Shown: in pieces, positions 35,904 to 48,291 of the stretch
Numbering within the stretch: the stretch's first letter is position 1
How the letters are laid out: every line of letters starts with the position of its first letter
DNA from: Edaphocola flava
GTDB taxonomy: Bacteria; Bacteroidota; Bacteroidia; Chitinophagales; Chitinophagaceae
DNA: 64,000 bases
Direction of reading: 5' to 3'
Assembly (NCBI RefSeq): GCF_004118155.1
Contig: NZ_SAIQ01000003.1
Location: 496,001 to 560,000, forward strand
Translations under genes and position numbers: made by a program
The notes under the pieces: model-generated
Seen by the model: only the letters and a program-made list of their open reading frames with translations
Databases searched by the model: none
What the model was told of the DNA's origin: nothing

Positions 35904-35985
35904 GCCCAGGTGGCGAAATTGGTAGACGCACCGTCTTCAGGTGGCGGCGCCGTAAGGTGTGATGGTTCGAATCCATTCCTGGGCA
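35904..35985 (+). tRNA. tRNA-Leu (anticodon CAG)
   Basis: Complete cloverleaf: acceptor stem GCCCAGG / CCTGGGC; D stem GCG/CGC with loop containing TTGGTAGA; anticodon stem CCGTC/GGCGG with loop TTCAGGT, giving anticodon CAG; a long class II variable arm, as required for leucine; T arm GATGG/CCATT with TTCGAAT. The discriminator base is A and CCA is not encoded. A strong promoter precedes it and a terminator follows. Confidence 0.96.
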
Positions 35986-35987
35986 CA

Positions 35988-36319: not shown

Positions 36320-39300
36320 ATGTCTGATAGTATTATTCTGGGTAAAGCAATGCCCGAACTGATCAGAGATGAGATGCTGAGTGCCTTACTCCAGCCCTCA
36401 TTTCTGGCTCATCGCGATAAAGCAGCTTTTATATTTCAAGACCGTATACTAACCTATGCGGAACTGGACAACTGGAGCAATGCCATTGCACAGCAACTCA
36501 TAGACTCCGGCGTGCAACCGGGAGATACTGTAGGGGTCTGGTATCCGCGTAGTCTGGAGCTGCCGGTCGCGATACTGGGCATTATCAAGGCCGGGGCCGC
36601 ATACGTTCCCCTTGATCGCGAAATGCCCCAGGATCGTATCCGAAAGGTGTTTGGAGATATTGGTGTACGCACTTATTTTTCCGATACCGATGCCGGTATC
36701 CATTGTACGCCATTGACTATCGCAACCGAACCGCTTACTATAGTACCGGCACCGGAAATCATTGCCAGGCCGGACGATTGGGCTTACGTATTGTTTACGT
36801 CCGGCAGTACAGGTAATCCGAAAGGTATTCCCATCAATCATAGAAACATCTGTCATCTTATCCGTTCTGAGCAGCAGGTACTGCACATCACCGATGCAGA
36901 TAAAGTGTACCAGGGATTTTCGGTCTCATTCGATATGTGGTGTGAAGAGGTCTGGATCAGCCTGTTTGCAGGTGCAACCATCTGGATTGCAGATGCCATA
37001 GCCGTAAAGGCAATCGATGAATTGAGCGAGGTGCTCAGGTCGCAGAACATTACTATACTGCATGCCGTACCCAGTATTCTGGCTATTATAGATGAAGTGC
37101 CTGCTATAAGACTCGTCAATTCAGGAGGAGAGGCCTGCACCCCACAGGTGCAACAGAAGTGGGCAAAACCTTACCGCAAATTCATCAACAGCTATGGGCC
37201 GACGGAAACAACGGTCACTTCCAATATGGCTTTTGTACAGGCAGGAGATGAACTGACGATAGGCACACCACTACCCAATTATAACCTGGCGGTTGTAGAT
37301 GAGCACATGCGTATTGTTCCCCGCGGGGAGCGTGGTGAAATGATCATCTCGGGTCCGGGCGTAAGTATGGGCTACTTTAACCTCCCAGAATTTACTGCAC
37401 AGAAATTTATTCCTAACCCTTTTAGTGAATTGCCCGGTAAGCACATTTATAAAACCGGAGATGCAGTAATGATCAGGGAAGATGGCTTCCTTGAATTCCA
37501 GGGCAGAATTGATGACCAGGTAAAACTGCGTGGCTATCGTATTGAACTGGGTGAGATTGAGAGCCGGATGAATGATATCAGTGGTATTGCCTCTGCAGCT
37601 GTTGCCATTAGACCGGACAGCAACCGGCAGGATCAACTGGTGGGCTATATCGTTATGGAAGAGGGCCATATCGCAGATGAAGACACTATCCGGAAAATAC
37701 TTTCAGGCTTCCTGGCACCATATATGGTACCGGTTGCATTTGTTATATTGCCCGAAATGCCCCGGATGCCCAGTGGCAAGATTGACCGGAAGAAGTTGCC
37801 GCTTCCAGAAGCATTCATCCCAACTGAAGGTGATCAGCAAACAGTAGAAATTGATCCCAATAGCCCGGTAAAAGACCGCTTGCTACAGGTACTGAACATT
37901 ATATTCCCTGGAAAGCATATTCATCTTTCCCAGGACTTCTTTACAGACCTGGGAGGCCATTCACTGCTTGCCGCAACTCTGGTATCCCATTTAAGACAAA
38001 AAGCATATCTGCAACAGGTATCGCTAAAAGACCTGTATACACATCGACCTCTTTCTGCCTTTGCAGAAAACATAGAAGAACAATCCGGATCGGCAGCTGC
38101 TGCCAGTCCGTTTCAAAGGGTCAGCCGCCTGCAATATATACTCTGCGGGATTGCCCAGACTTTTGCGCTGCTCCTGATTTACGGTCTGTTGGCAGTACAG
38201 ATATTCTTTCCATACCTGAGTTACTATTATTTTAATGTAAGCGGTTACGGCCATATTACTGCCCTATTAAGCGCGATATTACTGTACCTGCTTATTCCGC
38301 CGGTATTTGCATTGCTGATCGTCGGCTCCAAATGGCTGTTTATAGGTAAGATCAGGGAAGGTGACTACCCTCTTTGGGGATGGTACTATTTCCGTTGGTG
38401 GTTATGGAAAGCGATGAAGCGCCTGTTACCTTCAGAATTTATTGTAGACACTCCCCTGTACCCAAGATACCTGCGTTTACTGGGCGTCAAAGTTGATGCC
38501 TCAGCGCAGCTGAGTTTACTGCCCATCGGTGCAGAAGATCTTGTAACCATAGAGGGTAATGTGAGTACCTCCTCCGGCTGCAGCATAGACAATGCAAGCG
38601 TAGAAAACGGGATCTTAAAACTACGGAAAGTACATATCAAGGCAAATGCGTACCTGGGATCTTCGGCTATCGTATGCGGAGACACTGTTATAGAAGCACA
38701 TGGTGTGCTCCAGGACCTGAGCTGCCTGCCGGAAGGCCAGCACATAGGATATGGAGAGATATGGGACGGCAGCCCTGCGGTAAAAACACATACGGTTCCA
38801 CCGGAAGAACTACCCGAACCGAATATGGTTTCGCGCAGCCTGCGTAACCGCTATAGCCTGTTTTACCTGGCCTCATTGTTTATTTTCCCCCTGGTAGTCA
38901 TCATACCCCTGACACCGGTTTTGTATACATTGTATTACCTGGATGATCAGGCAGGAGATTACCAGTTTTACTATTTATGGCAGGTGCCGATCCTTGCTGC
39001 ATTGTACCTCGTACTATTTATGCTCATCATTTCGGGTATATCCCGGTTATTGCAGTATAAAATGCAACCGGGAGTGTATTCCATTTATAGTTTTACTTAT
39101 TACCGCAAATGGATGAAAGATCAGCTGATGAACCTTTCGCTGATTGTACTTCATCCACTTTATGCGACTGTTTACGTATCTAAATACTACCGTATGCTGG
39201 GCGCTAAGGTGGGCCGGAATGCAGAAATCTCTACAGCCAGCGACGTAAGTCATCATCTGCTGGAAATAGGAGAAGGGTCTTTTATTGCAGATGCTGTAAT

Positions 39301-40246
39301 CCTCGGAGAACATGATGTCCGCAACCAGCAACTGATTTTACAGAAAACCGTCATTGGGCATAATAGTTTTGTAGGCAACAGTGGCCTTATACCACAGGGC
39401 TACTCGCTGGGCAGCGGCATGCTGATTGGTGTCTTGTCCAAAGCCCCGTCGGAAGAGCAATTACGGCAAAGTGCAGAGAAAGACTGGTTTGGTTCGCCTC
39501 CCATTGGTCTGCCTTCACGCCAGCAGAGTGTTGCATTTGACAGTAGCCTTACCTTTCATCCACCGCTTAAGTTGAAGCTGGCCAGAGGATTGGTAGAAGG
39601 TATCCGGATCATTCTCCCTCAAACGGTCATTACCACGTGCAGTGTACTGTTTGTTGCTTATGCACATGACCTGCTGTCTATGTCGCCGGGCCGGCTTATT
39701 ATATCCATTCCGATATACTATTTACTATTTATGGGTGTGCCTGCCTTCTTGGTTACTGTGTTACTGAAATGGTTACTTGTTGGTAAGTATGAAGAGATGG
39801 CCATGCCTATGTATAGTCTGAAAGTATGGCTGAGTGAAGCGGTAACCAGCTTTTATGAAGCGCTGGCCGTAGTATTTTTCCTGGACCAGTTAAGAGGCAC
39901 TCCCTGGCTTCCTGTTATGCTCCGTTTATTAGGCGTTAAAACCGGTAAGCACGTATGGATGAATACGACAGACATTACTGAGCATGATATGGTAACGATA
40001 GATGATGAAGCGATGCTGAATGAAGATTGTGGCCCGCAGACCCATCTTTTCGAAGATCGTATTATGAAGATCGGTTCTGTACATATCGGCCGTCAGTCTA
40101 CAATCGGTACCCGCACTATTATCTTATATAACAGTATGATCGGCAACCATGTTACCATTTCCTCCTTATCTCTTGTGATGAAGGGAGAAACATTGCCGGA
40201 TCAGACCGCATGGACAGGAAGCCCTGTACGGCCGGATCATGGTTGA
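36320..40246 (+). CDS. Monomodular membrane nonribosomal peptide synthetase, epsilon-poly-lysine synthetase (Pls)-like
   Basis: A 1,308-residue enzyme. Adenylation domain 1-495: TSGSTGNPKG (160-169), YGPTE (292-296), GRIDDQVKLRGYRIE near 395, PSGKIDRK (Lys 487). Carrier domain about 515-585, phosphopantetheine site LGGHSLL (Ser 548). Then three units, each two membrane segments plus a hexapeptide-type beta-helix domain: TM 604-632 and 645-672 with helix 715-820; TM 846-874 and 885-910 with helix 958-1040; TM 1098-1118 and 1124-1153 with helix 1203-1300. No condensation or thioesterase domain. This is the A-T-(TM2-C)x3 plan of Pls, which makes poly-lysine by repeated amide formation. By-eye pocket residues D-M-E-S-V-S-S-V-T-K resemble the lysine code. 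Confidence 0.88.
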   Translation: MSDSIILGKAMPELIRDEMLSALLQPSFLAHRDKAAFIFQDRILTYAELDNWSNAIAQQLIDSGVQPGDTVGVWYPRSLELPVAILGIIKAGAAYVPLDREMPQDRIRKVFGDIGVRTYFSDTDAGIHCTPLTIATEPLTIVPAPEIIARPDDWAYVLFTSGSTGNPKGIPINHRNICHLIRSEQQVLHITDADKVYQGFSVSFDMWCEEVWISLFAGATIWIADAIAVKAIDELSEVLRSQNITILHAVPSILAIIDEVPAIRLVNSGGEACTPQVQQKWAKPYRKFINSYGPTETTVTSNMAFVQAGDELTIGTPLPNYNLAVVDEHMRIVPRGERGEMIISGPGVSMGYFNLPEFTAQKFIPNPFSELPGKHIYKTGDAVMIREDGFLEFQGRIDDQVKLRGYRIELGEIESRMNDISGIASAAVAIRPDSNRQDQLVGYIVMEEGHIADEDTIRKILSGFLAPYMVPVAFVILPEMPRMPSGKIDRKKLPLPEAFIPTEGDQQTVEIDPNSPVKDRLLQVLNIIFPGKHIHLSQDFFTDLGGHSLLAATLVSHLRQKAYLQQVSLKDLYTHRPLSAFAENIEEQSGSAAAASPFQRVSRLQYILCGIAQTFALLLIYGLLAVQIFFPYLSYYYFNVSGYGHITALLSAILLYLLIPPVFALLIVGSKWLFIGKIREGDYPLWGWYYFRWWLWKAMKRLLPSEFIVDTPLYPRYLRLLGVKVDASAQLSLLPIGAEDLVTIEGNVSTSSGCSIDNASVENGILKLRKVHIKANAYLGSSAIVCGDTVIEAHGVLQDLSCLPEGQHIGYGEIWDGSPAVKTHTVPPEELPEPNMVSRSLRNRYSLFYLASLFIFPLVVIIPLTPVLYTLYYLDDQAGDYQFYYLWQVPILAALYLVLFMLIISGISRLLQYKMQPGVYSIYSFTYYRKWMKDQLMNLSLIVLHPLYATVYVSKYYRMLGAKVGRNAEISTASDVSHHLLEIGEGSFIADAVILGEHDVRNQQLILQKTVIGHNSFVGNSGLIPQGYSLGSGMLIGVLSKAPSEEQLRQSAEKDWFGSPPIGLPSRQQSVAFDSSLTFHPPLKLKLARGLVEGIRIILPQTVITTCSVLFVAYAHDLLSMSPGRLIISIPIYYLLFMGVPAFLVTVLLKWLLVGKYEEMAMPMYSLKVWLSEAVTSFYEALAVVFFLDQLRGTPWLPVMLRLLGVKTGKHVWMNTTDITEHDMVTIDDEAMLNEDCGPQTHLFEDRIMKIGSVHIGRQSTIGTRTIILYNSMIGNHVTISSLSLVMKGETLPDQTAWTGSPVRPDHG

Positions 40247-40247
40247 T

Positions 40248-40889
40248 TCAGCGCAGCAATAATTGCCTGATGTCCATTTTGTATTCTGGTTCCGTACTGG
40301 CCACCTGGACGACATAATCGGAATCTATATCAATCTGCTGCAGAAAAAAAGATTGACCGTTCCACAAAACCGGATCCTGCCTGGTATTTATATCTGCCAG
40401 GCAGACCTCCTGAATACCCGATCCTTCGGCCTTCAGTACAGCTTCTTTGCCAGTCCAGCAATGGTAGAACAGGCTTTCAGGGTCCTGGCTTTGCAGAAGG
40501 GCCTTCTGTTCTTCAGGATGCAAAAAGTCGTTATATACTGCGGGGTCAATACTTGCTTGCCTGTATTCCACATCAATCCCATTCTCCAGCCGGGGATCTG
40601 CACTCAGTACACAAATGCCTTTACTGTAGGCTGTACTGAAATATAAAGGGGGCGTATGCAGCTGAGGCTGGTGCTGTGGTGTTTTATAAAGTTGGGTTAG
40701 CACTGATTTATGCTCAGGATAAAAATGCTGTACAGCTGCCTCCAGCAATAGCTTTCCCGCAATCCGTACATAACGATCCTCTTCCTGCTGGTATGCATTA
40801 ACGCGCTGCTGCAACAGTTCCGGAAATGTCTGCAGCCGTTGATCCAGTAATGTTAGATCACAATCTTTAAGAAACGTATACCAAATCAT
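40248..40889 (-). CDS. 4'-phosphopantetheinyl transferase (Sfp type)
   Basis: Transfers phosphopantetheine from CoA to a carrier-domain serine. The two family motifs are intact: NGIDVEYR near residues 100-107 and FYHCWTGKEAVLKAEGSG near 141-158. At about 213 residues it is a compact Sfp-like enzyme. It faces the peptide synthetase gene tail to tail with one base between the stop codons. I chose ATG 40889 (MIWYTFLKDCD), where family-like sequence begins; an in-frame ATG 16 codons upstream (40937) is possible. It is the likely activator of the synthetase carrier domain (inference from position). Confidence 0.88.
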   Translation of the reverse strand: MIWYTFLKDCDLTLLDQRLQTFPELLQQRVNAYQQEEDRYVRIAGKLLLEAAVQHFYPEHKSVLTQLYKTPQHQPQLHTPPLYFSTAYSKGICVLSADPRLENGIDVEYRQASIDPAVYNDFLHPEEQKALLQSQDPESLFYHCWTGKEAVLKAEGSGIQEVCLADINTRQDPVLWNGQSFFLQQIDIDSDYVVQVASTEPEYKMDIRQLLLR

Positions 40890-41089
40890 AATCTTCCAAT
40901 AGCTGGTATCGAATATATACTTTTTTGCTTTAAGCATCCTTTAGTTTGTGCACAGATATTTTGCACTGTATTATTACACAATTGTAAAGGTTTAAGACAT
41001 CAGATCTTTGAAAATGGACTTGTGAATATTTATAGCATATGAATATCCAAACTGCGTCAGAAGCAGGTCTGAATGAACAGATCGCCAGT

Positions 41090-41152: not shown

Positions 41153-42982
41153 TTATTTCTGAAGGATGATCTGTTTTGCAATTACCTGCTGATCCTGTGT
41201 ACGAAGTTTCAAGAGATAGACTCCGGAAGGCAGGTCCTGAATAATTATCGGCTGGTGGGCTTCGAACCCGAGGTCTTTTATTTTACGCCCATTCAGCTGG
41301 AACAATTCCATACTGGCCAGGCGGTATTTTTGCTGGTCATATTCCAGCTGGAATATACCTGTTCCCGGATTAGGGTAAAGCCTGAAGGCATTAGCCAGTC
41401 CCGGTGTATATAAGGAAGTTGACGTATCAACAGACTTCTGGTATTCTACTGCCCCTATATCGATCGTATTATTAAATACCCTTGTATGGCCATTATAATC
41501 TGCACTGCCATAATCCGGCACTGCATTACTACCCTTGTTGATGCAGTTTGTAGAATTACTAGCCAATCCGAAATCTACATTAAGGGCATTATAAGTCGGG
41601 CCTGCGCCTAATATCGGCGAAGCCAGTTGTAAATTATGGTCATAGATATTTGTGCTGAGGCCCTGTACACCAGCAGGCATATTGGTATTAGGATAAAAGT
41701 CAATCAGGTTATTGGACAGGTTAAGGTTCAGGGCTGCAAACTTGAAATTATTATAGGCAGTATCAAAAGGATTATAGTTCTGCTTATTATTGAAAATAAT
41801 GTTATTCGAGATTCTGAGCTTACAATAAGTTCCCCATCCATGTATGGCCGCACTTCCGGTATAGTCCTTTACGGTATTGTTTACAATCGTATTATTAACG
41901 ATGGTGGCCTGGCAGTGCTGTGCCCATATACCACCTCCGCTGATGGAGGAATAGTTGTTGGCAATGATATTATTACGGACGATATGGTCGTTACGACCGG
42001 GTACATCACTATCCAGGTCCTGGCCTAAAAGCTGCAGTCCACCACCACCGTCATTAATCCCGCAAAAAACACCTTCAGCCAATGTCTGGTTGTTATTGCA
42101 AATCAAGTTTTGCTCAATCAGGGATGATTTGGACTGGAGGGCCACTGCCCCATTCAGATTGGTATTGTTATGATGTACGCGGTTGCGTTGAAAAATAACA
42201 TTACCCCCATATGCACTATTGAAGATACCACCGCCATTGCTCTGGGTATTATTGTATAATTCATTATCCCTGAACAGCAGTACATTGTTGCTCATCATAC
42301 CGGTGGAGGTATGGGAAAACAGGCCGATTCCTCCGCTGGACGTATTGTTATAAAATTTATTATTGAGTACATAAGCACTATCCTCATATAAGACATGCAT
42401 CAGTGTTCCGGTACGGTTATCATGTACACTGCAATTGGTAAACCTTAGTTTGCTGGCACTTTGCGTTTGTCCGAAATTATAGAGGGAGATCAGGCGCTCC
42501 ATCGCAATATTATGATAGAACTCGCATTGATTGATATACAGCAGCGGAATAGTCGAGGTAATAGCACTATTATTAATGCCTCGTTTAATATCCTTGAAAA
42601 TGCAATATTCAAAGGTTGGGTTCCCGAAGTTCATACTGCCGGTATTTTCGAGGCCCAGCCCGCTCCATCCTCCCGCTGTGGTGGCCACATTAGACCATCC
42701 TGTGGTATCATTGGCCCGGAACACGATCTTCTGCTCCGGTGTTCCTTTTGCCGATATGGTTCCATAAACGTATAACTGGTAATTGCCCATAAACACAACC
42801 TGGACGCCCGGCTGAATGGTCAGGGTATTGCTTAAAGGGACAGCGATGTCATTATGGATATAATAGGGAGAACCTTCCAGGGTCCAAGTTCCAGAAACGT
42901 TAGGCGTATTGACCTGGGTCGCAGCAAAACTGCCCTGACAAATGGCCAGGAAGGAGGTAAGGTAGCATAGAATTTTTTTCAT
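41153..42982 (-). CDS. Secreted right-handed beta-helix protein with type IX sorting domain
   Basis: A 609-residue protein with signal peptide ending GSFAA. Residues 60-500 contain repeated Asn-rich rungs (VRNNIIANNYSS, TIVNNTIVNNTV, RISNNIIFNNKQNYN) of a parallel beta-helix, like pectate-lyase or 'right-handed parallel beta-helix' proteins. The last 75 residues are a type A type IX secretion sorting domain: LYPNPGTGIFQLEY, LFQLNGRKI, LPSGVYLLKL and a Lys end. It is therefore exported across the outer membrane and probably attached to the surface. No catalytic residues can be named, so enzyme or adhesin role is open. Confidence 0.92.
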   Translation of the reverse strand: MKKILCYLTSFLAICQGSFAATQVNTPNVSGTWTLEGSPYYIHNDIAVPLSNTLTIQPGVQVVFMGNYQLYVYGTISAKGTPEQKIVFRANDTTGWSNVATTAGGWSGLGLENTGSMNFGNPTFEYCIFKDIKRGINNSAITSTIPLLYINQCEFYHNIAMERLISLYNFGQTQSASKLRFTNCSVHDNRTGTLMHVLYEDSAYVLNNKFYNNTSSGGIGLFSHTSTGMMSNNVLLFRDNELYNNTQSNGGGIFNSAYGGNVIFQRNRVHHNNTNLNGAVALQSKSSLIEQNLICNNNQTLAEGVFCGINDGGGGLQLLGQDLDSDVPGRNDHIVRNNIIANNYSSISGGGIWAQHCQATIVNNTIVNNTVKDYTGSAAIHGWGTYCKLRISNNIIFNNKQNYNPFDTAYNNFKFAALNLNLSNNLIDFYPNTNMPAGVQGLSTNIYDHNLQLASPILGAGPTYNALNVDFGLASNSTNCINKGSNAVPDYGSADYNGHTRVFNNTIDIGAVEYQKSVDTSTSLYTPGLANAFRLYPNPGTGIFQLEYDQQKYRLASMELFQLNGRKIKDLGFEAHQPIIIQDLPSGVYLLKLRTQDQQVIAKQIILQK

Positions 42983-44505: not shown

Positions 44506-46929
44506 CTATGCCTTTTTCCATTTCAGGCGCAAGCTGTTGCTCACTACACTTACACTGCTGAGCGCCATTGCTGCTCCGGCGATCATGGGATTGAGCAGGA
44601 AGCCGTTTATGGGATATAATATGCCGGCCGCAAGCGGAATACCGATTACATTATAAATAAAGGCCCAGAACAGATTCTGGCGAATGGTACGTACCGTATC
44701 TCGTGACAGGCGGATGGCATAAGGTATCTTATTCAGGTCTGCACTGATAATGGTCATCTTCGCTACATCCATGGCAATATCAGAACCCTTGCCCATAGCG
44801 ATGCTTACATCTGCCTGCGCCAGTGCTGCACTGTCATTGATCCCATCGCCCACCATGGCCACTACATGTCCTTGTGCCTGCAGTGCACGTACATAGGCGG
44901 CTTTCTCTTCCGGTAATACACCTGCCTTGACGGTTTCAATACCGACTTTATCGGCAATAGCCCTGGCAGCTGCGGGTTGGTCTCCGGTAAGCATATGCAC
45001 GCTGATACCCATGTCTGTAAAAGCCTTCACGGCTGTGGCAGAAGAGGGCTTTACCTGGTCTGCTATAGCCAGGATAGCCAGTGCCTGCTGCTCATCGGCA
45101 AACCAGATGAGGGTATACGATTGGGCCGACCAGCGATCTGCCAGTGATTGCAATTCGGGATTTATAGCAATATGATGTTCTTGCAGCAAAGTCTGGTTGC
45201 CGGTATAATAGGTTTTCCCTGCCCATTCGGCCTGTATGCCTTTCCCGGTAATACTGTTCACATGCATATCCAGTATGCGGTGTTCTTTTGTCTCCAGGAA
45301 GCGTACTACAGCTGCTGCCAGCGGGTGTTCAGATTGTCGTTCTATGCTATACAGCACGGAATGGTATAATTCATTACTTTCTAATCCCTGAGATTGCACT
45401 ACTGCTGGTTTCCCTTCTGTAATGGTACCAGTCTTATCCAGAATAATGGTATCTACTTTATGGGTCAGTTCCAGGCTCTCTGCATCTTTGATCAGGATAC
45501 CCTGTTCGGCGCCTTTGCCTACGCCCACCATAATGGCCGTTGGTGTAGCCAGGCCCAGCGCACAGGGACAGGCAATGACCAGCACGGTTACGAAGGCGAG
45601 CATACCATGAGTAAACCCTTCGGCCCCACCCCAGATCCACCATATCGCCAGGGCCAGTGTGGCAATAAGCATCACTACCGGTACAAATATGGCGGCAATA
45701 CGATCGACCAGTTTCTGTACCGGGGCTTTACTGCCCTGGGCTATTTGTACCATTTTAATGATCTGGGACAACATGGTGTCTGCGCCTACCTGATCGGCCC
45801 GGAAACGGAAGCTTCCTTTCTGGTTCAGGGTACCCGCAAAAACGGCATCATTCACGGCTTTAGCCACAGCTACCGGTTCTCCGCTCAACATGCTCTCATC
45901 TACATAAGATGCACCCTGGATCAGTGTTCCGTCTACAGCTATCTGCTCACCGGGACGCACCACGATGATGTCTCCTTTCTGTATCAATTCTATGCTGACT
46001 TCTGTTGTACTATCATCATCATTCAGGCGCATAACGGTTTTGGGTTGCAGCCCCATCAGCTTTTTAAGGGCTTGCGAAGTATTGCTTTTGGCGCGGGATT
46101 CCAACAGCTTGCCCAGCAGGATGAAGGCAATGACTACCGCAACCGATTCAAAATAGACGTGCGCATGAAGCCCCCTGCTATGCCAGTAGCCGGGAAATAA
46201 GGTATTAAATATGCTGAAAATATAGGCCACTCCCGTGCTTAATGCCACCAGGGTATCCATATTGGCGGTACGATTGCGGGCTTGCTTCCAGGCATTTACA
46301 AAAAAGTCTTTACCGAACCAGAGGATAACCGGTGTCGTTAATGCCCACATGATATAATTGGCATAAGGCATATCCATCCAAACCATACCGATCAGCATAA
46401 CTGGTGCGGAAAGGATAAGGGAACCGATGGCTCTTTGGCGCAGGGAGCGGTATTTCTCCATATGCATCTGTGCCAGGAGGTCCTGTTCTTCTTTGCGCTC
46501 TTCGACCAGCAGATCGAAGCCGGTTTGCTGTAATGCTTGTTTGAGTTGTTGCCCGTCGGTAATATTGGGCAGGAAGCTAACCGATAAAGTTTCTGTTGCA
46601 AAATTCACAGAAGCGGATACGACTCCGGGAGCATGCTCCAGTACGCTGGTCACACTGGCTGCGCAGGAAGCGCAACTCATATTCAGCACGGGATATTGTT
46701 TGCGTACGAGTGGTACACCATAGCCCAGTTCTTCTATTTTTTTAATGGCTTTAGGAAGGTCTTCCTGTAATTGGGAGGAGGAGATCAGCACCCGCTGATT
46801 ATTAAGCTCTACGGTATGCTGCTGCAGGCTGCCTATTGATTGCAATCCTTTATCGACAATCATGGCGCAGTGCTCACTTTCGACCCCTTCAAGGGGTATA
46901 TATATGCTATCAGTAGTATCTTTAGACAT
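44506..46929 (-). CDS. copA: Copper-translocating P1B-type ATPase
   Basis: An 807-residue ion pump. Two N-terminal HMA domains: the first is degenerate (GVESEHCAMIV, one Cys only) and the second has a full CASC site (NMSCASCAAS). Eight membrane segments follow, with the metal-channel motif CPCALGLATPTA. Catalytic motifs are complete: SGEPVAV, DKTGTITEG (phosphorylated Asp), SEHPLAAAV and MVGDGINDSAAL. The CPC motif and Asn/Tyr-rich final helices fit a Cu(I) exporter (copA). I chose ATG 46929; the longer frame begins with TTG. The HMA chaperone gene follows and an HMA-AraC regulator is upstream. Confidence 0.94.
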   Translation of the reverse strand: MSKDTTDSIYIPLEGVESEHCAMIVDKGLQSIGSLQQHTVELNNQRVLISSSQLQEDLPKAIKKIEELGYGVPLVRKQYPVLNMSCASCAASVTSVLEHAPGVVSASVNFATETLSVSFLPNITDGQQLKQALQQTGFDLLVEERKEEQDLLAQMHMEKYRSLRQRAIGSLILSAPVMLIGMVWMDMPYANYIMWALTTPVILWFGKDFFVNAWKQARNRTANMDTLVALSTGVAYIFSIFNTLFPGYWHSRGLHAHVYFESVAVVIAFILLGKLLESRAKSNTSQALKKLMGLQPKTVMRLNDDDSTTEVSIELIQKGDIIVVRPGEQIAVDGTLIQGASYVDESMLSGEPVAVAKAVNDAVFAGTLNQKGSFRFRADQVGADTMLSQIIKMVQIAQGSKAPVQKLVDRIAAIFVPVVMLIATLALAIWWIWGGAEGFTHGMLAFVTVLVIACPCALGLATPTAIMVGVGKGAEQGILIKDAESLELTHKVDTIILDKTGTITEGKPAVVQSQGLESNELYHSVLYSIERQSEHPLAAAVVRFLETKEHRILDMHVNSITGKGIQAEWAGKTYYTGNQTLLQEHHIAINPELQSLADRWSAQSYTLIWFADEQQALAILAIADQVKPSSATAVKAFTDMGISVHMLTGDQPAAARAIADKVGIETVKAGVLPEEKAAYVRALQAQGHVVAMVGDGINDSAALAQADVSIAMGKGSDIAMDVAKMTIISADLNKIPYAIRLSRDTVRTIRQNLFWAFIYNVIGIPLAAGILYPINGFLLNPMIAGAAMALSSVSVVSNSLRLKWKKA

Positions 46930-47028
46930 GATCGAACTTGTATTGGTTTTATTCCACAAAGTTCGACCATATCCAAAGCATGGTTGTTACATTATTTTGT
47001 AACTGTTTTATAAGATTCGGGCATCAGC

Positions 47029-48291
47029 CTATTTTACGGTAATTTTTTTACGCACTATACCTCTGTCGGTATCCAGTATCAGGATATATATTCCCGGAGC
47101 AATGCCCTCCAGGTTCAGGGATTGCTGCGCATTCCACTGTCTGTAGGTCATTTTACCACTGATATCGCTTAAGGCAATACGGGAAATTTTTACGGATGGG
47201 TCATACTTCAGGAACAGCTGAGTGGTAGCTGGAACAGGATATACTTTCAATCCGATCTGCTCTGCCAGCTCATTGATGCTGTTAGGTGGTACGGTTACGG
47301 TAATTGTTTGTGTTGCCGTATCGGCCTGATCGCAGAAAGAAGCGATAAGGGTAACGGTATAGGAACCGGAAGCAGTATAGGTATGAGATGGTGTCGGGCT
47401 GATCGAGCTTTGTCCGTCACCGAAACTCCAGTTGTACTGATCGGCATGCTGAGATGCATTGGTAAAGTCTACCACGTTATTGGTGATGCTGCTTGTAAAA
47501 TCTGCCGTAACTACCGGCAGGAATCGGTTCCAGTGATCAAGACTATCATAAGCGGTAGCTTCAGCGATTGTTTTAATAAGCGCAGTAGTGCCCGGATTCA
47601 GACCGGCAGTATAGGTGCTTTCCAGGGGGCTTTTTTCAAATAAAACGGAGTAGAACGCACATGCTGCAACGAAAGTACCTGCCATAGACGGATGGCTTTC
47701 ATCGGTATCATATAACTCTATACCGGGAGCGGATGTGCGTACACGGTGCCACACCATAGCCACTGGTGCAATAGCACTGCTGTTGAACTCAGCCATTTTG
47801 GAATAGCGCAGTTGCAGTAAGCTATCCATACCATCATAGGTACATACCGGCGGAAAAAATGCGCAGTTAGACGCATCACCGTTTTTGCGGCCCCAGGTTA
47901 CATAGAATATTGTTTTGGCACATGGGTTATTTTCATGAATGATGCTGTCCAGTGCATGTGCATATGGGTACACATCAGATGCGACCTGCGCATCCGGGAA
48001 GCTTGGCAGCTGACTTTGTTCCTGCAATACGACATAATCCCAGTTGCCCTGCTGTATTTTGCTCAGGGTTGTGGTATTGGTGGTATGCTGCTGGAAGGTG
48101 TAGCCACCGGGTGCAGACATATCATAAATAAGGGTATCGTGTGTACCATCTGCCAGTTGGGCTATCTGCGAGGGAAGGTTATTCACTGCGGTATAACTGT
48201 TACCGATAAACAGCACGCGTAAGGTTTTGGCCTGTACGACCAGACCGGAACATAAAAATGCGGCAATTAAGGAGATTTGTTTCATGGACAA
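47029..48291 (-). CDS. Secreted SGNH-like (DUF4886) protein with PKD and type IX sorting domains
   Basis: A 420-residue protein with signal peptide ending VVQA. Residues 25-260 look like the DUF4886/SGNH hydrolase fold: the start VLFIGNSYTAVNNLPSQ (block I, Ser near residue 32), WDYVVLQEQS, and the late DESHPSMAGT (block V, Asp-x-x-His). A PKD domain (about 265-340: NWSFGDGQSSISPTPSHTYT) is followed by a type IX C-terminal sorting domain (last 80 residues: KVYPVPATTQLFL, GIAPGIYILIL). It is thus a surface-exposed probable esterase or lipase. It lies between copA and its likely regulator, but has its own promoter. Confidence 0.88.
   Translation of the reverse strand: MSMKQISLIAAFLCSGLVVQAKTLRVLFIGNSYTAVNNLPSQIAQLADGTHDTLIYDMSAPGGYTFQQHTTNTTTLSKIQQGNWDYVVLQEQSQLPSFPDAQVASDVYPYAHALDSIIHENNPCAKTIFYVTWGRKNGDASNCAFFPPVCTYDGMDSLLQLRYSKMAEFNSSAIAPVAMVWHRVRTSAPGIELYDTDESHPSMAGTFVAACAFYSVLFEKSPLESTYTAGLNPGTTALIKTIAEATAYDSLDHWNRFLPVVTADFTSSITNNVVDFTNASQHADQYNWSFGDGQSSISPTPSHTYTASGSYTVTLIASFCDQADTATQTITVTVPPNSINELAEQIGLKVYPVPATTQLFLKYDPSVKISRIALSDISGKMTYRQWNAQQSLNLEGIAPGIYILILDTDRGIVRKKITVK

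What the first reader, a model, noticed from the sequence alone, without database searches (positions are those of the whole stretch)
36320..40937. A Pls-type monomodular membrane peptide synthetase in a Bacteroidota chromosome with its own phosphopantetheinyl transferase
The 1,308-residue protein has one adenylation domain, one carrier domain (Ser 548), then three repeats of two membrane segments and a hexapeptide-type domain. This is the plan of epsilon-poly-L-lysine synthetase, known mainly from Streptomyces and fungi. No condensation or thioesterase domain is seen. A Sfp-type transferase faces it, with one base between stop codons. Together they look like a compact system making a homopolymer or short oligo-amide of one amino acid at the membrane. 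I know of no characterised example from Bacteroidota.
Basis: partly seen in the sequence, partly recalled or inferred. Interest (0 to 1): 0.92.

Follow-up and report, generated by a model that had tools for sequence, protein, structure and literature searches.

The report
Bacteroidota poly-ornithine synthetase with activating enzyme
A Bacteroidota bacterium carries an intact gene for a membrane enzyme that very probably strings the amino acid ornithine into a short, positively charged, possibly antifungal polymer; the enzyme family is known, but I found no characterised example from this group of bacteria.

Summary
Observation confirmed. Window 36320-40246 (+) encodes a 1,308-aa A-T-C1-C2-C3 protein matching NCBIfam TIGR02353 (Pls/PosA) at 612 bits (cut-off 423); its terminal domain has six hydrophobic segments and models at pLDDT 92. 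A Sfp-type PPTase (40248-40937, -) converges on it, one base away. The family call is right, but "mainly Streptomyces and fungi" is out of date: PosA of Acinetobacter baumannii makes delta-poly-L-ornithine, and homologues are reported from many phyla. The pocket here is DMEHNGSVTK against DMEHNGTVSK in PosA (8 of 10 identical, two Thr/Ser swaps), and PosA is the best single-domain PDB match. [quoted passage not shown] New points: PPTase linkage recurs (27 of 86 loci, three arrangements), and a GNAT acetyltransferase is the next gene downstream in 18 of 86. The GNAT is absent from this genome; in the whole genomes sampled, all four that carry it also carry a synthetase, which suggests an acetylation partner. 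New member of a known kind. Substrate and product are inferred, not shown.

The parts
36320..40246 (+). Pls/PosA-family synthetase, 1308 aa (A-T-C1-C2-C3), predicted delta-poly-L-ornithine synthetase
   Evidence: TIGR02353 612.2 bits vs cut-off 423.1; PF00501, PF13193, PF00550; 80 of 86 homologues (window included) have the pocket DMEHNG[ST]V[ST]K
36320..37819 (+). Adenylation domain (about res 1-500); pocket D205 M206 E209 H248 N267 G269 S291 V299 T300 K487
   Evidence: phmmer alignment to PosA 8g95/8g97 (positions up to 300), PosA code from PMC10522769, code over 86 loci
37868..38068 (+). Carrier (T) domain, res 517-583; phosphopantetheine site Ser548 (codon 37961-37963)
   Evidence: PF00550; Ser in 86 of 86 homologues
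38153..40228 (+). NRPS terminal (polymerisation) domain, res 612-1303: three repeats, each a pair of membrane helices plus a probable left-handed beta-helix
   Evidence: TIGR02353; hydropathy and repeat alignment; AlphaFold2 pLDDT 92.3; Foldseek to hexapeptide acyltransferases over part of the model
40248..40937 (-). Sfp-type 4'-phosphopantetheinyl transferase, 229 aa, convergent
   Evidence: PF01648 50.5 bits, cut-off 25; PPTase within two genes of the synthetase in 27 of 86 loci
35904..35986 (+). tRNA-Leu(CAG) between cysK and the synthetase (boundary of the unit, not part of it)
   Evidence: ARAGORN

Best explanation
[quoted passage not shown] Inferred mechanism: the PPTase loads phosphopantetheine on Ser548; the A domain activates L-ornithine as the AMP ester (D205 holding the alpha-amine, E209 the delta-amine, S291 and T300 the side-chain end, M206 setting chain length) and loads it on the carrier; [quoted passage not shown] By analogy with Acinetobacter the product is about a dozen residues long and mildly antifungal or biofilm-modulating. 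Shown here: the domains, pocket, hydrophobic segments, intact genes and gene linkage. Inferred: substrate, product, linkage chemistry, export and biology.
For: TIGR02353 well above cut-off. Pocket DMEHNGSVTK against PosA DMEHNGTVSK; the five PosA residues shown to contact ornithine (D217, M218, E221, T304, S313; PMC10522769) are D, M, E, S, T here. Over the pocket segment (res 186-304) three distinct PDB sequences reach E<=1e-12: two PosA constructs (122 bits each) and Pls 7wew (65 bits). Over res 1-407 PosA scores 330 bits as one domain, against 204 for the better single domain of LgrA, which tops the list only by summing two. With the whole protein as query the A-core-only PosA chain gives 327 bits, tyrocidine synthetase chains 305 and 304 over a longer stretch, GrsA 294 and Pls 262. 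69 of 71 Bacteroidota loci carry DMEHNG[ST]V[ST]K. The own genome has no condensation domain at E<=0.001, and of its four PP-binding hits this is the only one in a large protein. A PPTase lies within two genes in 27 of 86 loci in three arrangements; about 0.2 expected by a rough estimate.
Against: Ser and Thr at pocket positions 7 and 9 are swapped relative to PosA; T304A and S313A in PosA cut efficiency 33- and 183-fold, so these positions matter even though the hydroxyls are kept. The window protein is 42-43% identical in the A domain and 38-39% in the terminal domain to two Acinetobacter homologues, so the polymer could differ in length or linkage. In 59 of 86 loci no PPTase was detected within two genes (21 of the 86 lie near a contig end), and the genome has a second Sfp-like PPTase of 250 aa that might serve the synthetase instead.
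Confidence: 0.75

Rival explanations
1. The enzyme makes a polymer of another basic amino acid (epsilon-poly-L-lysine, poly-diaminobutyrate or poly-diaminopropionate).
For: Same family and architecture; PosA's A domain also shows some activity with L-Lys (PMC10522769, section 7). One Bacteroidota homologue (L040) carries the lysine-like code DAESIGTVIK. A cysteine-synthase gene lies upstream.
Against: Pocket position 2 is Met, as in the Orn enzyme; lysine enzymes have Ala and PDAP/PDAB enzymes Phe (PMC10522769). The upstream gene is CysK (TIGR01139 417.7 bits, above its cut-off 350.95) and not SbnA (TIGR03945 260.5, below its 349.95); a tRNA gene separates it, and it is not among the upstream ORFs next to the 98%-identical copy in Edaphocola aurantiacus (L036; L088).
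Confidence: 0.15
2. The terminal domain does not release a free polymer but transfers one or a few amino acids to a lipid or surface acceptor, as its beta-helices look like acyltransferases.
For: Nearest solved folds of the terminal domain are galactoside, maltose and serine acetyltransferases and gamma-carbonic anhydrases; no Pls-type terminal domain is among the 50 listed hits (best TM-score over the query 0.18).
Against: The same kind of domain supports polymer synthesis in purified full-length PosA (PMC10522769, section 7); TIGR02353 covers the whole domain.
Confidence: 0.08
3. The adjacent PPTase is the cell's general carrier-protein activator and its position is incidental.
For: Most synthetase loci (59 of 86) have no PPTase detected within two genes, both Acinetobacter loci included; PMC10522769 calls posA a single-gene operon. 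On the tree the PPTase label is hardly clustered.
Against: 27 of 86 loci have a PPTase within two genes against about 0.2 expected by a rough estimate, in three arrangements, with 21 changes on the tree (contig ends inflate the change count). This genome holds a second, unlinked PPTase.
Confidence: 0.15

Closest known systems
PosA, delta-poly-L-ornithine synthetase of Acinetobacter baumannii (PMC10522769; PDB 8g95-8g98)
   Same: A-T-terminal domain plan; pocket 8 of 10 identical with Ser/Thr swaps at the other two; best single-domain PDB match; six-helix, three-repeat terminal domain with beta-helices
   Different: 42-43% A-domain and 38-39% terminal-domain identity to two Acinetobacter homologues, L110 and L112; posA is described as a single-gene operon, here a PPTase converges on the synthetase
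Pls, epsilon-poly-L-lysine synthetase of Streptomyces albulus (PDB 7wew for the A domain)
   Same: Architecture and TIGR02353 family; second match over the pocket segment (65 bits)
   Different: Ala rather than Met at pocket position 2; substrate lysine
PDAP and PDAB synthetases of Streptomyces (PMC4668381, start of abstract in the search listing only)
   Same: Same family; polymers of short diamino acids
   Different: Phe at pocket position 2 (from PMC10522769); need dedicated Dap/Dab supply genes (recalled), not seen here
Streptothricin-type poly-beta-lysine assembly (recalled; its stand-alone A domain is mentioned in PMC10522769, section 14)
   Same: Cationic isopeptide chain; a GNAT (streptothricin acetyltransferase) acetylates it (recalled)
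   Different: Not a Pls-type membrane terminal domain; cited only as precedent for the GNAT idea

Membership tests
Pls/PosA family non-ribosomal peptide synthetase (TIGR02353) | NRPS terminal domain over the curated cut-off | tested here: met
   612.2 bits vs 423.1, profile 2-695 of 695
Pls/PosA family non-ribosomal peptide synthetase (TIGR02353) | Single A and T domain, no condensation or thioesterase domain | tested here: met
   Pfam hits at E<=0.01 are only PF00501, PF13193, PF00550 and two sub-cut-off hexapeptide-type models
Pls/PosA family non-ribosomal peptide synthetase (TIGR02353) | Six membrane helices in three pairs with C1-C3 repeats | tested here: met
   Six terminal hydropathy peaks, one of them no stronger than three peaks in the A domain, and repeat alignment; helix pairs in the model
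Pls/PosA family non-ribosomal peptide synthetase (TIGR02353) | Makes a homopolymer of a diamino acid through isopeptide bonds | not testable with these tools
   Needs enzyme assay and mass spectrometry
delta-poly-L-ornithine synthetase (PosA type) | Pocket Asp217, Met218, Glu221, hydroxyl at 304 and 313 (PosA numbering) | tested here: met
   D205, M206, E209, S291, T300 by alignment
delta-poly-L-ornithine synthetase (PosA type) | Activates and polymerises L-ornithine | not testable with these tools
   No assay possible
epsilon-poly-L-lysine synthetase (Pls) | Ala at pocket position 2 | tested here: not met
   Met206
PDAP/PDAB synthetase | Phe at pocket position 2 | tested here: not met
   Met206
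PDAP/PDAB synthetase | Linked SbnA/SbnB-like Dap supply genes (recalled) | tested here: not met
   Upstream gene is CysK, not SbnA, by NCBIfam cut-offs; SbnB was not searched for
Sfp-type phosphopantetheinyl transferase | PF01648 domain and WxxKEA motif (motif recalled) in a >200-aa protein | tested here: met
   50.5 bits over cut-off 25; WTGKEA in a 229-aa protein

The most novel reading that the evidence does not exclude
In part of the Bacteroidota the delta-poly-ornithine synthetase is the core of a three-gene cassette: synthetase, dedicated PPTase, and a GNAT acetyltransferase that N-acetylates the polymer (self-protection, capping or a modified product). The window's genome and Edaphocola aurantiacus, nested among GNAT-bearing relatives on the tree, lack the GNAT, most simply by loss, and would make the unmodified polymer: a natural comparison of acetylated and bare forms.
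Probability: 0.35. Interest if true: 0.6.

Novelty: new member of a known kind. Interest (0 to 1): 0.42.

Why it matters
Only a few cationic isopeptide homopolymers have been identified chemically (PMC10522769, section 14). The locus is a simple heterologous-expression target (two genes, 4.6 kb) for testing whether Bacteroidota make one. The comparison across 86 loci adds two concrete leads: recurrent PPTase linkage and a co-occurring GNAT that may act on the polymer. If the GNAT acetylates the polymer, it would bear on how producers tolerate or tailor their own cationic product.

Tried and rejected
Considered and rejected: (1) a diaminopropionate system because of the upstream serine acetyltransferase and cysteine synthase pair: by NCBIfam the second is CysK above its cut-off and the first a CysE/EpsC-type match (below the cysE cut-off, just above that of EpsC), a tRNA intervenes, and the pair is not next to the copy in Edaphocola aurantiacus (L036, L088). 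(2) A first hand reading of the pocket that was one residue off at positions 5 and 6; the alignment to PosA gave N267 and G269. (3) LgrA as closest relative: it tops the PDB lists only because two A domains are summed. (4) A GNAT elsewhere in the own genome: none with the Taibaiella GNAT (no positive control) or with the 18-sequence profile (which did ring in G002, G003 and G009). (5) Flammeovirga pacifica paper PMC5385347 as a Bacteroidota Pls report: in the passages seen, PLs are polysaccharide lyases. (6) A linked PPTase in S. albulus: the PMC4361855 passages gave nothing on it.

Searches that led nowhere: papers (0 hits each; 2 hits, neither on linkage as far as seen); nothing relevant in the 15 listed of 598; GNAT against PDB sequences (0 hits at E<=0.01) and NCBIfam (none for one GNAT, a sub-cut-off RimI match for the other).

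Rows dropped: of 91 loci searched (L030-L119 and the window), L103 gave no synthetase in my ORF caller although one search shows one there, and 4 were duplicates, leaving 86; L090 and L097 (fragments) were also left out of the tree (84 rows). 21 of 86 lie within 2.5 kb of a contig end, so neighbour counts are lower bounds. The 80 places kept are the best of 583 and so biased to near relatives. The terminal-domain model used 51 of the 71 rows picked.
Full report
OBSERVATION. The two genes are intact and as described: a 1,308-residue protein at 36320-40246 (+) and a 229-residue protein at 40248-40937 (-), with only base 40247 between the stop codons. Pfam finds one AMP-binding domain, its C-terminal part and one carrier domain, and no condensation or thioesterase domain at E<=0.01. 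NCBIfam TIGR02353, named 'Pls/PosA family non-ribosomal peptide synthetase', matches residues 612-1303 over the full profile with 612.2 bits against a curated cut-off of 423.1. The terminal region has six hydrophobic segments in three pairs and three mutually alignable repeats; the scan also gave three weaker peaks in the A domain, and one terminal peak (1095-1115) is no stronger than these. The AlphaFold2 model of residues 596-1308, built with 51 homologues, has pLDDT 92.3 and pTM 0.91 and shows three long helix pairs, each followed by runs of short strands. Its nearest solved folds are hexapeptide acetyltransferases and gamma-carbonic anhydrases, aligned only over part (best TM-score over the query 0.18 among the 50 listed). 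This agrees with the published model of the PosA terminal domain (PMC10522769, section 13).

FAMILY AND SUBSTRATE. Patel and Gulick (PMC10522769; [quoted passage not shown] Their main text has no word beginning with bacteroid, flavobacter, chitinophag or pedobacter; their supplement could not be read, so Bacteroidota members may be listed there. The PosA pocket is D M E H N G T V S K, and Asp217, Met218, Glu221, Thr304 and Ser313 contact ornithine. In the window protein the aligned residues are D205 M206 E209 H248 N267 G269 S291 V299 T300 K487, i.e. DMEHNGSVTK. Over the pocket segment three PDB sequences reach E<=1e-12: two PosA constructs (122 bits each) and Pls (65 bits). Met at position 2 separates the ornithine enzyme from lysine enzymes (Ala) and from PDAP/PDAB enzymes (Phe). 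I therefore predict delta-poly-L-ornithine rather than poly-lysine. The polymer itself is inference.

DISTRIBUTION. The genome holds one match over the family cut-off; five further hits at E<=0.001 are far below it. Such weak hits are general (38 of 39 relatives and 13 of 14 control genomes), so I count only matches over the cut-off: 8 of 39 relatives, own genome included, and 5 of 395 in a phylum-wide sample, own included; the one control genome over the cut-off is Corynebacterium glutamicum. After removing duplicates 86 distinct loci remain, the window included. 80 of 86 carry DMEHNG[ST]V[ST]K; of the 71 Bacteroidota rows 69 do, the exceptions being L073 (DMESNGSVSK) and L040 (DAESIGTVIK, lysine-like). 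So this is a well-populated Bacteroidota branch of the ornithine type, and the window gene is one member.

PPTASE LINKAGE. A PPTase lies within two genes of the synthetase in 27 of 86 loci, 22 of them among the 70 Bacteroidota rows over 43% identity. There are three arrangements: 11 upstream divergent, 8 downstream convergent as in the window, and 8 downstream on the same strand (three of these overlap the synthetase by a few bases and were labelled 'up/same' by my script). Seven of the 27 were confirmed as PF01648; the rest are assigned by a profile built from those seven. From a rough two PPTases per 3,200 genes about 0.2 such loci are expected. The label needs 21 changes on the tree of 84 rows and is hardly clustered there, so linkage was gained or lost many times, in Proteobacteria as well, though loci cut by contig ends inflate that number. 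The own genome has a second Sfp-like PPTase of 250 aa elsewhere, so the linked one is additional. Its dedication to the synthetase is likely, not proven. The genome has no condensation domain at E<=0.001.

GNAT PARTNER. In all-against-all clustering of neighbours the two largest clusters are the PPTase (21 loci under that stricter rule) and a GNAT-type acetyltransferase in 18 loci, always the next gene downstream on the same strand; the next clusters hold 6 loci or fewer, mostly within a genus (18 clusters listed). Pfam PF00583 was confirmed in the three GNATs tested. The label needs 4 changes on the tree. The profile of 18 GNATs hits 3 of 39 relatives (E<=1e-8) and 1 of 395 phylum genomes (E<=1e-12); all four (G002, G003, G009, G127) also have a synthetase, in G009 on a different contig. 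By simple counting the chances are 0.006 and 0.013, without correction for relatedness (G002 and G003 are of one genus) and with one sample resting on a single hit. The converse does not hold: 8 of 12 synthetase genomes in these samples lack the GNAT, the window's own included. The best of five models (pLDDT 89.6; the others 74.9-80.9) is nearest to aminoglycoside and polyamine acetyltransferases (AAC(3)-Ia and DpA, 16-18% identity), enzymes acting on polyamines; this is weak, as the GNAT fold is general. The GNAT is absent from the window genome and from E. aurantiacus (G001). A polymer acetyltransferase for self-protection or tailoring is my most novel reading; paper searches on it gave 0 hits.

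AGAINST AND LIMITS. No enzyme data; two pocket hydroxyl positions are swapped relative to PosA; 59 of 86 loci show no linked PPTase and 68 of 86 no linked GNAT, partly because 21 loci end nearby; the sample favours near relatives; my PPTase and GNAT profiles were built from this window and a few relatives, though two rounds of rebuilding added nothing. The expected-by-chance figure is an estimate. The tree is a FastTree with several long branches. Literature statements cover open-licence PMC only and, where a listing was long, only its top.

VERDICT. Ordinary in kind, well supported, and a good candidate for a first characterised Bacteroidota delta-poly-ornithine synthetase. New member of a known kind.

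Noticed in passing
L041:11929-12414 (+) and 17 further loci of alignment A3: A GNAT-family acetyltransferase is the next gene downstream of the synthetase in 18 of 86 loci; in the whole genomes sampled the four that carry it all have a synthetase.
   Followed up: yes
window 35904-35986: tRNA-Leu(CAG) sits upstream of the synthetase; the genes upstream differ between this genome and the 98%-identical Edaphocola aurantiacus copy (L036), while the next gene past the PPTase (window 41153-42982, 609 aa) has a similar counterpart there (635 aa).
   Followed up: partly
L031:5264-7717 and L134:1386-3778 (genome G009): Similar-looking gene pairs (a membrane protein of about 490 aa resembling MBOAT/AlgI proteins, recalled, plus a gene of 302-327 aa) lie next to the synthetase on one contig and about 2.5 kb from the unlinked GNAT on another.
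   Followed up: no
L040:6707-10585 (genome G426): A divergent Bacteroidota homologue (33% identity) with a lysine-like pocket DAESIGTVIK and no PPTase or GNAT found nearby.
   Followed up: no
window 41153-42982 and 47029-48291: Two proteins with a Por_Secre_tail (type IX secretion) domain, the second with DUF4886 and PKD domains; a heavy-metal P-type ATPase lies between them at 44506-46959.
   Followed up: no
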